A stretch of 64,000 nt of DNA from Asaccharospora irregularis DSM 2635 (GTDB lineage Bacteria > Bacillota > Clostridia > Peptostreptococcales > Peptostreptococcaceae), in NCBI RefSeq assembly GCF_900129815.1, contig NZ_FQWX01000007.1, positions 1-64,000 on the forward strand. Reading direction: 5' to 3'. A model generated the notes under the pieces. The model had not been told where the DNA came from, made no database searches, and worked only from the letters and a program-made list of their open reading frames with translations. Positions 305-30,754 of this stretch are shown piece by piece. The position numbers and the translations under genes were made by a program. Position 1 is the first letter of the stretch. Each line of letters starts with the position of its first letter.

Positions 305-556
305 GACTTTAACTAGCTGGTCTATAATAAATAGGACGGATTTATTTCCGTGGTGCCACCTAAATTATATATATTTTAATAAAATACATATCACTTATTT
401 TCTGCTGTAACGTGCAGTCACGCTTTTCCTCCAAGATCCATTCATCAAACCTTTCTTGTTAAGTTCTCAGCCACCTTAACTCTCTGTATCGAACCTTTAT
501 TTGACTACTAATTCTTTTCATAGGACTAACTATATTAATATATGTTATATTTCTCA
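305..556 (-). ncRNA. T-box leader, tryptophan specifier, no gene visible downstream
   Basis: On the minus strand the region carries T-box hallmarks in order: a stem I AGAGAG/GGTGGCTGAGAAC segment (about 450-500), a specifier context GAA-TGG-A (TGG at 438-440, Trp), and the conserved T-box sequence AGGTGGCACCACGG (348-361), which binds the acceptor end of uncharged tRNA. ATTT and AAAT flank it as an antiterminator, and ACGGA/TCCGT (336-351) followed by U-rich sequence forms a short competing hairpin. T-boxes normally control aminoacyl-tRNA synthetase, biosynthesis or transport genes lying just downstream. Here the downstream side (below 300) holds only the opposite-strand end of an insertion sequence, so the regulated Trp gene is missing from the window. 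Confidence 0.8.
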
Positions 557-6584: not shown

Positions 6585-6857
6585 TAAAAAAGACCCGGCC
6601 CTTTCTAAATGAAAGGGACGAGTCTATAATCGCGTTACCACCCTAATTCTATATATAGATATACTTATCTATATATAACTCTCTTCTAGTATAACGGCAC
6701 CAACCGGCACAGCTTAATCGATTATAATCTTTCAGCCTGCAGCTTCGGAGTGATTTTCAATTTTATAAATTTATTGGTTCTCAGCTTATCCAACTCTCTG
6801 TGAAATTATCTAAAATCTACTCTCTCCATCATAGCTTTTATTATTTATGTTTATACT
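6585..6857 (-). ncRNA. T-box leader, isoleucine specifier (ileS)
   Basis: The minus strand shows stem I (GATGGAGAGAGTAG, then AGAGAG...GCTGAGAACC), a specifier context GAAA-ATC-A (ATC at 6752-6754, Ile), the T-box sequence AGGGTGGTAACGCG (6630-6643), and a strong intrinsic terminator in which GACTCGTCCCTTTC pairs with GAAAGGGCCGGGTC followed by T6 (6587-6623). Uncharged tRNA-Ile is expected to stabilise the antiterminator and allow ileS transcription. Confidence 0.93.
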
Positions 6858-26717: not shown

Positions 26718-28385
26718 TTATATTTTATCACTGTACTTTTCAAGCATACTTATAAATTTTTCAACTAAAGCCGGATCAAACTGTGTTCCTGCATTATTTC
26801 TTAATTCTTCTATAGCCTCATCACGACTTTTTCTAAAATTATAAGGTCTATGAGATGTCATAGCATCAAAACTATCTGCTATAGTGATTATCCTAGACAG
26901 ATATGGTATTTTTTCTCCTTCTAATTTGTCAGGATAACCTCTACCATCATATCTTTCATGGTGATACTTTACCACTGGAGTAAGCCTTTCAAATGGCTTC
27001 ATGCTTTCTATTAACTCTGCACTCACTACAGGATGCTCTTTTATTTTTGAAAACTCATCGTCCGTAAGCTTTGTCCTTTTATTTAAAAGCTCTTCCGGTA
27101 ACTCTACCTTGCCTATATCGTGTAAGTATGCAGCAAGCTTTATATCTATCTTTTCCTCTTCAGACAATCCCAAAAACTCTGCAAACCACTTTGAGTATAT
27201 AACTACCCTTTCAGTATGCCCGTACGTATATTTATCTTTTTTATTTATCATACTTATAAAAGCTTTTAGAGATTTCTTTATTTTCTCGTTTATATATAAG
27301 CTATCATCTACTTCATCTAATACACTGTAGTATGCCTCTACCCTGTTTTTATTGAAAAACTTAGCCCTATAAAGAGCATCATCCGCTGCATTTATAAGTT
27401 CATGTTTGCTTTTACCATTTTCCGGATAACAAGATACACCTACAGATATAGTCATATTTTCATCGGGTTGATTTTCCTGAGCATAGAAATAAGTATCCTC
27501 AATAGTTTTCCTTATTTTTTCACCTATCTCAATAGCCGTGTTTTTATCTGTATTAGGCAGTATCGCTACAAACTCTTCTCCTCCATACCTAGCTACTATA
27601 TCATTTTCCCTGACGGATTCTTTTAGAATTATCCCTATCTTTTTTAGTACCCAATCTCCATGCTGATGACCGTTTATATCATTATAGTTCTTGAAATAAT
27701 CTATATCCATAAATAATAACGATGCATTTTCTTTTTTTTCCTCTGAGTCCTTTATAACCTTGGTAAGCTGCTGCTGTAGATACCTGTGGTTAAACAAACC
27801 TGTTAATTCATCTACATTCGCTAACCTTTTTAAATCCTTGCTATATTCCACTTCTATATTGACATACATACTCAGGATAAATGCTGTAACCAGTAAAGAC
27901 GCTATAAGCACTAAATCTCTTTCAAAGTATATACTTAAAGTCTCCTTGTTAGGACTCATCATAAAGTCTATTAATATTAATTCTAACGATAAAATTAAAG
28001 CAGTTATTATACTATGTTTTTCTCCAAACTGTATAGTTGATATTAAAACAATGAATATACATATGAATTTATAAGGGCTTTCATTTCCCCCTGTAAACAT
28101 AACAATAGTAGTAAAAATAAATAACAGTATAATGATTTCTATCACTTTAGCTATACGATTACACCTGTCTACAAAATGTTTATGATAATAAACTACTAAC
28201 ATAAAATAAGTTATCATAAACAATAGTACTCCGATTGCAGATACTGCTACTGTTATAGGGTTATCTATTTTATTAATATCTACTGTACTTGTCAGTGCTA
28301 CTAAAGCCATCAATAAATATATCGACTTTAATATTAGTAGTACTTCAAATATTTTCTGATTTCTCTTCTTTTCATATTTTTTCAT
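26718..28385 (-). CDS. membrane c-di-GMP enzyme with GGDEF and HD-GYP domains
   Basis: This 555-residue protein has about six N-terminal membrane helices (residues 12-180), a GGDEF domain with intact GGEEF (about residue 267) and an HD-GYP domain (from about residue 350) with HTERV, LHDIGKVELP, HPVVSAELI and the HHERYDGRGYP signature. It could both make and degrade cyclic di-GMP; which activity wins cannot be read from sequence. ATG 28385 follows AGGTG by six bases. It begins about 40 bases after the agrD terminator, with no convincing promoter of its own, so it may depend on read-through from the agr-like operon. Confidence 0.88.
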   Translation of the reverse strand: MKKYEKKRNQKIFEVLLILKSIYLLMALVALTSTVDINKIDNPITVAVSAIGVLLFMITYFMLVVYYHKHFVDRCNRIAKVIEIIILLFIFTTIVMFTGGNESPYKFICIFIVLISTIQFGEKHSIITALILSLELILIDFMMSPNKETLSIYFERDLVLIASLLVTAFILSMYVNIEVEYSKDLKRLANVDELTGLFNHRYLQQQLTKVIKDSEEKKENASLLFMDIDYFKNYNDINGHQHGDWVLKKIGIILKESVRENDIVARYGGEEFVAILPNTDKNTAIEIGEKIRKTIEDTYFYAQENQPDENMTISVGVSCYPENGKSKHELINAADDALYRAKFFNKNRVEAYYSVLDEVDDSLYINEKIKKSLKAFISMINKKDKYTYGHTERVVIYSKWFAEFLGLSEEEKIDIKLAAYLHDIGKVELPEELLNKRTKLTDDEFSKIKEHPVVSAELIESMKPFERLTPVVKYHHERYDGRGYPDKLEGEKIPYLSRIITIADSFDAMTSHRPYNFRKSRDEAIEELRNNAGTQFDPALVEKFISMLEKYSDKI

Positions 28386-28423
28386 ATTTTTCACCTAATA
28401 GGAATTTAATTTGTTTAAAATAA

Positions 28424-28452
28424 CAAACCATAAGGAACTTCCTTATGGTTTG
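28424..28452 (-). terminator. hairpin after agrD
   Basis: CAAACCATAAGGAA and TTCCTTATGGTTTG form a near-perfect stem; the minus-strand tail TTATTTTAAA is only moderately T-rich, so termination may be partial. Confidence 0.7.
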
Positions 28453-28461
28453 CCAGTTTTG

Positions 28462-28581
28462 TTATTCTTCTCTTAAAGACTTTGGAACTTCTGGTTCGAA
28501 GAAAAAGAACATGCAAAATGTTGCTACTCCCCCTGCAACTCTAGTTGCTGTTCCTGATACAGCGTTCATTAAAAACTTCAT
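28462..28581 (-). CDS. agrD: AgrD-like autoinducing peptide precursor (39 residues)
   Basis: The frame encodes 39 residues from ATG 28581 with GGGGGG at 28588-28593 as ribosome site. It has the AgrD layout: an amphipathic N-terminal leader (MKFLMNAVSGTATRVAGGVA), a core with Cys23 followed by M-F-F-F-F, and an acidic tail EPEVPKSLREE that strongly resembles the EVPKEL tail of staphylococcal AgrD. Aligning the E-V-P-K tail predicts a five-residue thiolactone ring starting at Cys23, with C-M-F-F-F the likeliest ring and an extra Phe in doubt. It lies 77 bases downstream of agrB. The very hydrophobic ring is unusual but resembles clostridial peptides. Confidence 0.87.
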   Translation of the reverse strand: MKFLMNAVSGTATRVAGGVATFCMFFFFEPEVPKSLREE

Positions 28582-28599
28582 TGATATCCCCCCTTTTTA

Positions 28600-28616
28600 T
28601 TATGTAGACTACATAA
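28600..28616. promoter_or_regulatory. palindrome between agrB and agrD
   Basis: A 17-base near-perfect palindrome (TTATGTAG, then CTACATAA around a single central base) lies 19 bases before the agrD start. It may be a protein-binding site or a small mRNA hairpin. Confidence 0.4.
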
Positions 28617-28658
28617 GGATAAATTTTTTAAATGAAAAATTTATAATATATAATTCAA

Positions 28659-29315
28659 TTAATGTAATACCTTATACAACTTGTCCAGATACTTATCAAG
28701 TCCCATGACAATATTTTCTCCTGTTTTACTTATCGTAAATATCTGTAGTATTATTCCAAACAATATTGATATAAGAATACTCTTTATCAAATAATTGTTG
28801 TATATTGAATATATTAAGCATAAAGATAATACAATAAATGAATATACATTCATTAATTTGAAGGCTTTTTTCCTTAGTCTTGTTCTTATACTTTCTTTTT
28901 TAAGTGGCTTTTCCTTAGATCCAACTGGACATCTCAAATACAATACATAATATGATGTTATAATTACTACAAGTATAAAAATCATAACATGGTGTATACT
29001 TAACTTTTCTATGAAATATCTACATAAAAAAGCAAAAGCTGTTGCTATCAATATACCAATACTTAAACACCTATTTGGTGTACTCGCATGAGGTCCTCCA
29101 GCATACCTCTTCATCATTGCACTAAACGTCGATATAATAACAAGTTCTTTTAATAGACCAGTTACCAAACCTACTACTAATATCAATATTATTGAGTATA
29201 CCGCCTGTATTATGACAAATAAACCATAATTTAAAACAGCTATTTCCTCATCTGATTTTTCCAAATTCTTTCCCAATATATTTGCTAAGTGTATAGAAAC
29301 CTTTTCTGCACTCAT
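28659..29315 (-). CDS. agrB: AgrB-like peptide-processing membrane endopeptidase
   Basis: The 218-residue integral membrane protein has about five or six helices and the AgrB catalytic pair: His76 in RYAGGPHAS and Cys83 in TPNRCLS, the same spacing as His77/Cys84 in S. aureus. AgrB cuts the C-terminal tail of AgrD and forms the thiolactone. A basic loop (KEKPLKKESIRTRLRKK) lies near residue 135. It follows the 157-residue membrane protein gene by 39 bases and precedes agrD, in the usual B-D order. Confidence 0.93.
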   Translation of the reverse strand: MSAEKVSIHLANILGKNLEKSDEEIAVLNYGLFVIIQAVYSIILILVVGLVTGLLKELVIISTFSAMMKRYAGGPHASTPNRCLSIGILIATAFAFLCRYFIEKLSIHHVMIFILVVIITSYYVLYLRCPVGSKEKPLKKESIRTRLRKKAFKLMNVYSFIVLSLCLIYSIYNNYLIKSILISILFGIILQIFTISKTGENIVMGLDKYLDKLYKVLH

Positions 29316-29354
29316 TTAAATCCCCTTATTTATAAAATAAATTTAATTTTAAAA

Positions 29355-29828
29355 TCAACTATTAAATTTTCCCCAAAAACATTTTTTATTTATTTCTTTT
29401 ATAATTATAACTATTAAAAAGAATATTGCTAAAGATGGTAATGTTACTATTGCCCCTAATATACTAGTGTTGCTCATTAACAATTTTATAGGTAATTTTA
29501 ATATTCTGGTGGCTATACTTAGATATAACCCCTCACTTAGAACTAATGCTAAAAATATCTCCAGAGTACATATTATAGATTTACCAAGCTTACCATCTGA
29601 CAATTTTGATGATATAATCATTAAAGCTAATATAGAAAAAATAGTATGAATTCCAAAAGTTATAGGTAACATTCTTATTATAAAAACTAATATTCCTAAA
29701 ACTCCTCCTATCTTGACTAACTTCATCTTTTCTATATCTATTTCTATTAAAATCGCTATCGCTGATACTGTGCACAGACTCTCTGGTAAAGTCCTAATCA
29801 AAGTGTATATAATAGATGATTCTAGCAT
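29355..29828 (-). CDS. agr-linked membrane protein, sensor-like, without kinase domain
   Basis: This 157-residue protein has about five hydrophobic helices and little else. It contains IRTLPES (residue 11) and an R-x-L-P-I-T-F-G-I-H motif (about residue 52). The layout resembles the N-terminal membrane sensor half of AgrC-like GHKL kinases, but it ends with a short basic tail instead of a kinase. It is the first gene of the agr-like operon behind a strong promoter. It might sense the peptide or assist its export; both are inference. AAAGGAGAATTTCA precedes the ATG. Confidence 0.6.
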   Translation of the reverse strand: MLESSIIYTLIRTLPESLCTVSAIAILIEIDIEKMKLVKIGGVLGILVFIIRMLPITFGIHTIFSILALMIISSKLSDGKLGKSIICTLEIFLALVLSEGLYLSIATRILKLPIKLLMSNTSILGAIVTLPSLAIFFLIVIIIKEINKKCFWGKFNS

Positions 29829-29862
29829 TGAAATTCTCCTTTTTGATTTAATACATGTATAT

Positions 29863-29891
29863 ATTCTACCATTTTTCTTTTAATGTTTCAA
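29863..29891 (-). promoter_or_regulatory. promoter of the agr-like operon
   Basis: Minus-strand TTGAAA (29886-29891), 17-base spacer, TAGAAT (29863-29868); start near 29856. Confidence 0.72.
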
Positions 29892-29980: not shown

Positions 29981-30754
29981 TCATATATATTTTCTCATAT
30001 TTCTAAGAGCATTTTTCTCTATCCTAGATACTTGAGCCTGTGATATTCCTATCTCATCGGCTACTTCTATTTGAGTTCTTCCTTTGTAAAATCTTAAATC
30101 TAGGACTAATTTTTCCCTATTATTTAGTTTCTTAATTGCTTCTTTTAAGGCAATTTCTTGCAACCAGCTTTCGTCAGTATCTTTTTTATCTTGAACTTGA
30201 TCCATCACAAATATAGCATCCCCATTATCTTGGTAAACTGGGTCAAATAATGATATTGGATCTTGTATTGCATCTAGAGCCATAACTACAGATTCAACCT
30301 CTAATTCTAACTCCTTTGCTATTTCTGATACTGTTGGCTCTTTGGCATTTTGTCTAACCAATCTTTCCCTAACTTGCAATGCCTTATACGCTATATCCTT
30401 TAAAGATCTACTTACTCTTATAGGATTGTTGTCTCTTAGATACCTTCTTATTTCGCCTATAATCATAGGAACTGCATAAGTTGAAAATCTGACATTTTGG
30501 CTCAGGTCAAAATTATCTATAGCCTTTATGAGTCCGATACAACCTATCTGAAACAAATCGTCTATATTTTCGCCTCTGTTGTTAAATTTTTGAATTACGC
30601 TTAAAACTAATCTCAAATTACCTCTCACAAATTTTTGTCTCGCTTCTTCGTCTCCCTCTTTTATTTTTATAAGAAGTTCTGTCATTTGATTGTTTTTAAG
30701 AACTGGAAGCTCAGATGTATTTACACCACAGATTTCAACTTTATTAATTTGCAT
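29981..30754 (-). CDS. sigG: RNA polymerase sporulation sigma factor SigG
   Basis: The 257-residue sigma-70 family factor directs late forespore transcription. It begins with the SigG-specific MQINKVEICGVNTSELPVL, then region 2 (GNLRLVLSVIQKFNNRGENIDDLFQIG, DLSQNVRFSTYAVPMIIGEI), and region 4 near the end (YKGRTQIEVADEIGISQAQVSRIEK). Length is normal. It lies 88 bases downstream of sigE with a SigF/SigG-type promoter in the gap, the arrangement known from other spore formers. Confidence 0.95.
   Translation of the reverse strand: MQINKVEICGVNTSELPVLKNNQMTELLIKIKEGDEEARQKFVRGNLRLVLSVIQKFNNRGENIDDLFQIGCIGLIKAIDNFDLSQNVRFSTYAVPMIIGEIRRYLRDNNPIRVSRSLKDIAYKALQVRERLVRQNAKEPTVSEIAKELELEVESVVMALDAIQDPISLFDPVYQDNGDAIFVMDQVQDKKDTDESWLQEIALKEAIKKLNNREKLVLDLRFYKGRTQIEVADEIGISQAQVSRIEKNALRNMRKYI

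What the first reader, a model, noticed from the sequence alone, without database searches (positions are those of the whole stretch)
28424..29891. Compact agr-like peptide-signalling locus lacking AgrC and AgrA
A strong promoter drives a 157-residue sensor-like membrane protein, AgrB with His76/Cys83, and a 39-residue AgrD with Cys23 and an EPEVPKSL tail. The predicted thiolactone ring (C-M-F-F-F, perhaps plus one Phe) is extremely hydrophobic. There is no kinase or response regulator; the first gene looks like the membrane half of an AgrC sensor cut off from its kinase. It lies between sigG and a c-di-GMP enzyme, hinting at a link to sporulation or motile/sessile decisions. The agrD gene is easily missed because of its size.
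Basis: partly seen in the sequence, partly recalled or inferred. Interest (0 to 1): 0.68.

Follow-up and report, generated by a model that had tools for sequence, protein, structure and literature searches.

The report
Agr peptide wired to c-di-GMP enzyme
A Romboutsia-like gut anaerobe carries a four-gene quorum-sensing cassette in which an Agr-type signal peptide sits with a detached AgrC sensor subunit and, instead of a kinase, a membrane enzyme that makes and breaks the second messenger c-di-GMP; the same cassette recurs across Clostridia and may show how agrBD loci that lack agrC and agrA can signal.

Summary
In detail: a 157-aa membrane protein, AgrB (His76, Cys83) and a 39-aa AgrD (Cys23) lie on the minus strand at 28462-29828. 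The locus is not a stripped agr system, though: the next gene, a membrane GGDEF + HD-GYP enzyme (26718-28394), belongs to it. In 64 loci found only through the 157-aa protein, AgrB follows in 61, AgrD in 60, the same six-helix membrane input domain in 59, and GGDEF+HD-GYP in 50. In other species the same input domain carries a histidine kinase instead. Most likely mechanism (inferred): AgrB makes a CMFFF thiolactone; the detached sensor, with the enzyme's membrane domain, detects it and changes c-di-GMP. The genome has c-di-GMP riboswitches before flagellar and chemotaxis genes. The sigG neighbourhood is limited to the family. The library searched holds no paper describing this pairing. A complete canonical agr and an orphan agrCA pair also exist in the genome, so crosstalk is not excluded.

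The parts
29863..29891 (-). promoter-like site (TTGAAA-17-TAGAAT, extended -10) upstream of the 157-aa gene
   Evidence: position plausible, match count not above shuffles
29355..29828 (-). OrfX, 157-aa five-helix membrane protein: detached AgrC-type sensor subunit
28659..29315 (-). AgrB, peptide-processing membrane protease (218 aa, H76/C83)
28462..28581 (-). AgrD, 39-aa precursor of a cyclic peptide
28501..28515 (-). codons C23-F27 of AgrD: predicted five-residue thiolactone ring CMFFF
   Evidence: inferred from alignment with other AgrD peptides; no mass spectrum
28424..28452 (-). hairpin between agrD and the enzyme gene, terminator- or attenuator-like, conserved with compensatory changes
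26718..28394 (-). membrane GGDEF + HD-GYP enzyme (558 aa from GTG; the likely start is the ATG at 28385, codon 4, nearly invariant in homologues)
27837..28385 (-). six-helix membrane input domain ('GGN'), weakly related to the PilS-like 6TM domain; proposed to couple to OrfX and the peptide
27345..27821 (-). GGDEF domain with GGEEF active site and RxxD I-site
26766..27263 (-). HD-GYP (HD_5) domain with HDIGK and HHE..DG.GYP motifs

Best explanation
The locus is a complete peptide quorum-sensing cassette, orfX-agrB-agrD-GGDEF/HD-GYP. AgrB cuts and cyclises AgrD to a hydrophobic thiolactone (ring most likely C-M-F-F-F), which is exported. OrfX, the membrane sensor half of an AgrC kinase encoded as a separate subunit, detects the peptide together with the six-helix membrane domain of the downstream enzyme. 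Binding changes the balance of the enzyme's two catalytic domains (GGDEF makes c-di-GMP, HD-GYP breaks it), so the quorum signal is read directly as a c-di-GMP level without kinase, response regulator or DNA binding. Likely readouts are the c-di-GMP-I riboswitches upstream of flgBC-fliE and of a chemoreceptor, and two PilZ proteins. Shown by computation: gene content, homology of OrfX to AgrC sensors, linkage, intact catalytic motifs, output swapping, riboswitches. Inferred: peptide maturation, binding, OrfX-enzyme contact, and the direction of the c-di-GMP change.
For: Linkage: a scan of 84,980 species genomes with OrfX alone gave 75 loci; of 64 with at least 2.5 kb downstream, AgrB 61, AgrD 60, the same membrane input domain 59, GGDEF+HD-GYP 50, in Peptostreptococcaceae, Clostridiaceae, Peptococcaceae, Moorella, Desulfotomaculum and others. 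In 61 relatives, 17 of 18 places with the input domain lie within 1.6 kb of OrfX (the 18th is beside masked sequence), each beside AgrB. In 291 class-wide genomes all 15 with the input domain carry AgrB, against 107 of 291 overall, P = 1.6e-7. OrfX = AgrC sensor: profile hits on full-length AgrC-type kinases (E 1e-24 to 1e-6, several beside AgrB); hhalign with AgrC N-termini 89.7%, E 1.8e-6, unrelated membrane pairs under 1%; operons orfX-GHKL kinase-agrB-agrD-agrA. Output swap: the same input domain fused to PAS-HisKA-HATPase in Clostridium species, at least four separate changes on the OrfX tree. OrfX stays beside an input-domain protein where AgrBD is absent (L145), which favours a receptor role over a maturation role. 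Catalytic motifs intact. c-di-GMP effectors in the genome.
Against: No binding, peptide or c-di-GMP measurement exists. One locus (L148) has agrBD plus the enzyme but no OrfX, so OrfX is not always needed. In the family f48 genomes a weaker relative of the input domain sits away from AgrB (in G096 next to uvrC), so the domain is not strictly peptide-linked. hhalign finds no similarity between the input domain and AgrC. The genome also holds a complete agrACBD and an orphan agrCA pair.
Confidence: 0.62

Rival explanations
1. The peptide acts through an ordinary AgrC/AgrA pair elsewhere in the genome (orphan pair on contig C43, or the canonical pair on C49), as VirS does for the C. perfringens agrBD, and the c-di-GMP enzyme is only co-transcribed.
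For: G000 has an AgrC-like kinase plus LytTR regulator on C43 with no AgrB nearby and a complete agrACBD on C49. Precedent: VirS as receptor in C. perfringens (PMC7492741).
Against: Seven relatives that keep the cassette have no homologue of the C43 sensor at E 1e-6 (G001, G002, G012, G017, G033, G040, G046). Co-transcription alone does not explain linkage to the same input domain over many families, or the replacement of its output by kinases.
Confidence: 0.15
2. OrfX is an accessory factor for AgrB (peptide maturation or export) or an immunity-like protein, and the input domain of the enzyme alone is the receptor.
For: OrfX is usually directly upstream of agrB; L148 has agrBD plus the enzyme without OrfX.
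Against: OrfX is homologous to, and fused in, AgrC kinases, stands beside the kinase in split-AgrC operons, and stays beside an input-domain protein where AgrBD is absent (L145).
Confidence: 0.13
3. The link is only transcriptional: agrBD and the enzyme share an operon and growth-phase control, without direct sensing; the enzyme senses something else.
For: A conserved hairpin separates agrD from the enzyme gene, so the two may be expressed at different levels; the PilS-like 6TM domain could sense another cue.
Against: Near-complete co-occurrence of OrfX (AgrC sensor), AgrBD and this input domain while outputs vary; no other receptor gene is conserved in the cassette.
Confidence: 0.1

Closest known systems
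Staphylococcal agr (agrBDCA)
   Same: AgrB protease and AgrD precursor with a thiolactone ring and charged tail; OrfX is homologous to the membrane sensor region of AgrC-type kinases
   Different: sensor is a separate protein, no kinase and no AgrA; the output is a c-di-GMP enzyme
C. difficile Agr1 (agrB1D1 only; PMC8534292, PMC10602386)
   Same: agrBD in Peptostreptococcaceae without agrCA; receptor unknown
   Different: The genomes I take to be Clostridioides (G016, G035; unnamed in the tool) have agrBD but neither OrfX nor the input domain, so Agr1 is probably not this cassette
C. perfringens agrBD-VirSR (PMC7492741)
   Same: agrBD with no local agrCA
   Different: receptor there is an unlinked histidine kinase, VirS
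C. autoethanogenum Agr systems (PMC8748961)
   Same: incomplete agr loci with a kinase but no agrA; the C. drakei and C. carboxidivorans loci found here have orfX-orfX-agrBD followed by an input-domain protein of kinase size
   Different: kinase output, no c-di-GMP enzyme; OrfX is not mentioned in the passages read
RpfR (BDSF receptor of Burkholderia, PMC9684580)
   Same: a quorum signal read by a c-di-GMP enzyme
   Different: fatty-acid signal in a Gram-negative; no peptide, no AgrB (RpfR details partly from own knowledge)

Membership tests
AgrB | Pfam AgrB domain with catalytic His and Cys | tested here: met
   (115.9 bits, cut-off 23); H76 and C83 invariant in an alignment of 15
AgrD cyclic autoinducer precursor | short ORF next to agrB, amphipathic leader, ring Cys, acidic proline-containing tail | tested here: met
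AgrD cyclic autoinducer precursor | mature thiolactone in supernatant | not testable with these tools
   needs mass spectrometry
AgrC | polytopic membrane sensor domain | tested here: met
   OrfX; AF2 model with five membrane helices, pLDDT 92.6
AgrC | DHp (SPOB_a) and GHKL kinase domains in the same protein or in the cassette | tested here: not met
   no kinase at this locus; the output is GGDEF + HD_5
Complete agr system (agrBDCA) | AgrA (response regulator with LytTR) in the locus | tested here: not met
   none adjacent; LytTR regulators lie on other contigs
Bifunctional GGDEF/HD-GYP enzyme | GG(D/E)EF, RxxD I-site, HD..HDxGK, HHE..DGxGYP | tested here: met
   window: GGEEF, REND, HDIGK, HHE..DGRGYP; among 50 homologues GG(D/E)EF is found by the motif search in 44, HDxGK in all 50 and HHE..(D/N)G.GYP in 49
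Bifunctional GGDEF/HD-GYP enzyme | cyclase and phosphodiesterase activity, and its control by peptide | not testable with these tools
   needs enzyme assay

The most novel reading that the evidence does not exclude
A widespread but undescribed class of Gram-positive quorum sensing in which a cyclic Agr peptide, through a detached AgrC sensor subunit, directly controls a membrane c-di-GMP synthase/hydrolase; the detached sensor is a general adaptor that plugs one peptide system into interchangeable outputs (GGDEF/HD-GYP, PAS-HisKA kinase, GHKL kinase).
Probability: 0.55. Interest if true: 0.85.

Novelty: new variant of a known kind. Interest (0 to 1): 0.72.

Why it matters
Many clostridia have agrBD without agrCA, and papers on C. 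difficile Agr1 state that the receptor is unknown. This cassette offers a concrete, testable answer for a large set of other Clostridia: the receptor is split, and the output can be the second messenger that controls motility, biofilm and (in C. difficile, PMC8653836) sporulation, instead of a two-component cascade. It also points to a protein family without a Pfam match (OrfX) and suggests why searches for whole AgrC miss it.

Tried and rejected
Masked, not lost: G023 seemed to keep the enzyme without orfX-agrBD, but that stretch reads N, so it was discarded as evidence. Pfam and NCBIfam give no hit for OrfX (relatives). PDB sequence search and Foldseek give no significant structural relative for the OrfX model; the best VIA-align rows (sensory rhodopsins, Z about 6) are within the level expected of helical bundles. 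No Rfam element lies near the locus; the only matches in the window are two T-boxes elsewhere. Literature searches for AgrB with GGDEF or HD-GYP gave only reviews and C. difficile papers in which agr and c-di-GMP are linked through transcription. sigG linkage as a clue to function was dropped because it is lineage-specific. The C. botulinum agrBD paper (PMC2897414) is not held, so whether it mentions an OrfX-like gene was not checked.

Full report
What is there. On the minus strand the order is sigG (29981-30754), OrfX (29355-29828), agrB (28659-29315), agrD (28462-28581), a hairpin (28424-28452) and a membrane GGDEF + HD_5 protein (26718-28394). The listed GTG start of the enzyme overlaps its own likely ribosome-binding site (AGGTG, read from the sequence); the ATG three codons in (28385) is nearly invariant in homologues.

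Conservation near home. A search with OrfX in 60 relatives found it in 18 other genomes. In L026-L034 and L036-L038 the whole order sigG-OrfX-agrB-agrD-enzyme is kept (in L032 agrB is broken); in L035, L039 and L041 the four-gene cassette is kept without sigG. AgrD keeps Cys23 and, within the family, a tail close to (F/Y)EPE(V/M)PKSLREE, while the three residues after the Cys vary and the fifth ring position is Phe, so the ring is probably C-x-x-x-F. The enzyme's membrane domain, searched alone, is found in 17 of the same places, within 1.6 kb of OrfX, plus one place next to masked sequence.

Conservation far away. A scan of one genome per species with the OrfX alignment gave 75 loci. The pattern used came from OrfX only, so what follows OrfX was not selected for: AgrB 61, AgrD 60, the input domain 59 and GGDEF+HD-GYP 50 of 64 loci with enough sequence. 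They span Peptostreptococcaceae, Clostridiaceae, Peptococcaceae, Thermotaleaceae, Neomoorellaceae, Desulfotomaculaceae and others. In an even sample of 291 Clostridia genomes the input domain occurs in 15, all with AgrB (P = 1.6e-7); of the 13 strong hits (E below 1e-37), 11 lie beside AgrB, one is on a contig apart from it, and one lies beside OrfX without AgrB (L145).

What OrfX is. Its profile hits full-length kinases over the sensor region: L127 (440 aa, next to AgrB, E 2.8e-18), L139-L141 (about 1e-24) and L142-L144 (1e-6 to 1e-7, next to AgrB); the representatives tested have SPOB_a and GHKL domains (L127, L139, L143). Profile-profile comparison with AgrC N-termini from the family, L127 left out, gives 89.7% and E 1.8e-6; five comparisons of unrelated membrane families give under 1%. 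In L149, L150, L153 and L154 OrfX stands next to a 282-300 aa GHKL kinase, then agrB, agrD and a regulator-sized gene, confirmed as a LytTR response regulator in L149 and L150: AgrC cut in two inside an otherwise complete agr operon. The AF2 model is confident (pLDDT 92.6) with five membrane helices; it has no clear structural relative in the PDB.

What the enzyme is. Six membrane helices, a long signalling helix (150-193), GGDEF, HD-GYP (model pLDDT 88.8). The membrane domain is weakly PilS-like (10 of 30 members, best E 2.1e-6). The window's GGEEF, I-site, HDIGK and HHE..DGxGYP motifs are intact; HDxGK is found in all 50 homologues, HHE..(D/N)G.GYP in 49 and GG(D/E)EF in 44. In Clostridium species the same membrane domain carries PAS-HisKA-HATPase, and the OrfX tree needs at least four separate changes for that state. 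A fixed peptide and sensor module with swapped outputs is what a receptor domain would show.

Hairpin. Between agrD and the enzyme a stem is kept in all 12 loci aligned in the family, with 4 of 11 pairs changed on both sides in at least one sequence. It resembles a terminator with a weak U tract; I read it as partial termination or mRNA protection that lets agrD be expressed more than the enzyme. This is inference.

Possible readouts. The genome has two c-di-GMP-I riboswitches, one just upstream of genes I read as flgB, flgC and fliE, and one near a gene I read as a methyl-accepting chemotaxis protein on its strand (named from sequence), and two PilZ proteins, one on a glycosyltransferase that looks cellulose-synthase-like.

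Competing receivers. Contig C49 holds a regulator, agrC, agrB and agrD with predicted ring CTWYV; C43 holds an AgrC-like kinase and LytTR regulator without AgrB. Seven relatives with the cassette lack a homologue of the C43 sensor at E 1e-6, so C43 cannot be the general receptor, though it could be a local one.

Relation to literature. C. difficile Agr1 has no known receptor (PMC8534292, PMC10602386), and C. perfringens uses VirS (PMC7492741). The genomes I take to be Clostridioides have neither OrfX nor the input domain, so this cassette is probably not Agr1's answer. No paper found in the library searched describes agrBD with a c-di-GMP enzyme in one locus; subscription papers are mostly not held, so novelty is provisional.

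Limits. Everything beyond gene content, homology, linkage and motifs is inferred. No peptide, binding, interaction or enzyme activity was shown, and the sign of the c-di-GMP response is unknown.

Noticed in passing
G000 contig C49:4117-6374 (L001, L121): The same genome has a complete canonical agr operon: LytTR regulator, agrC, agrB, agrD with predicted ring CTWYV.
   Followed up: partly
G000 contig C43:11406-13444 (L120): Orphan AgrC-like kinase plus LytTR regulator, no AgrB nearby, next to a large ABC-permease-like gene; possible cross-talk receiver.
   Followed up: partly
L149, L150, L153, L154: agr operons in which AgrC is encoded as two genes, OrfX-type sensor and 282-300 aa GHKL kinase.
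   Followed up: yes
L145 2585-4928: OrfX beside a 608-aa protein that starts with the input domain and lacks GGDEF; no agrBD nearby, perhaps an eavesdropping receptor.
   Followed up: no
L148 2861-5419: agrB-agrD-GGDEF/HD-GYP with no OrfX detected in that genome.
   Followed up: no
L052 (Faecalimicrobium dakarense) and G028:C6:51472-51930: agrB reading frame broken while orfX, agrD and the enzyme look intact; pseudogene or assembly error.
   Followed up: no
L084: AgrB and AgrD read as one 269-aa open frame.
   Followed up: no
L067, L070, L072, L073, L075, L087, L093, L099, L102, L109: Two or three OrfX copies in tandem in one cassette.
   Followed up: no
G023:C1, L119 4863-6461: The stretch between sigG and the enzyme reads as N, so the apparent loss of the cassette there is not evidence.
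   Followed up: yes
G000 C41:1684-1767 and C37:185016-185093: c-di-GMP-I riboswitches before flgBC-fliE-like genes and near a chemoreceptor gene.
   Followed up: partly
window 329-530 and 6611-6841, minus strand: Two T-box leaders.
   Followed up: no
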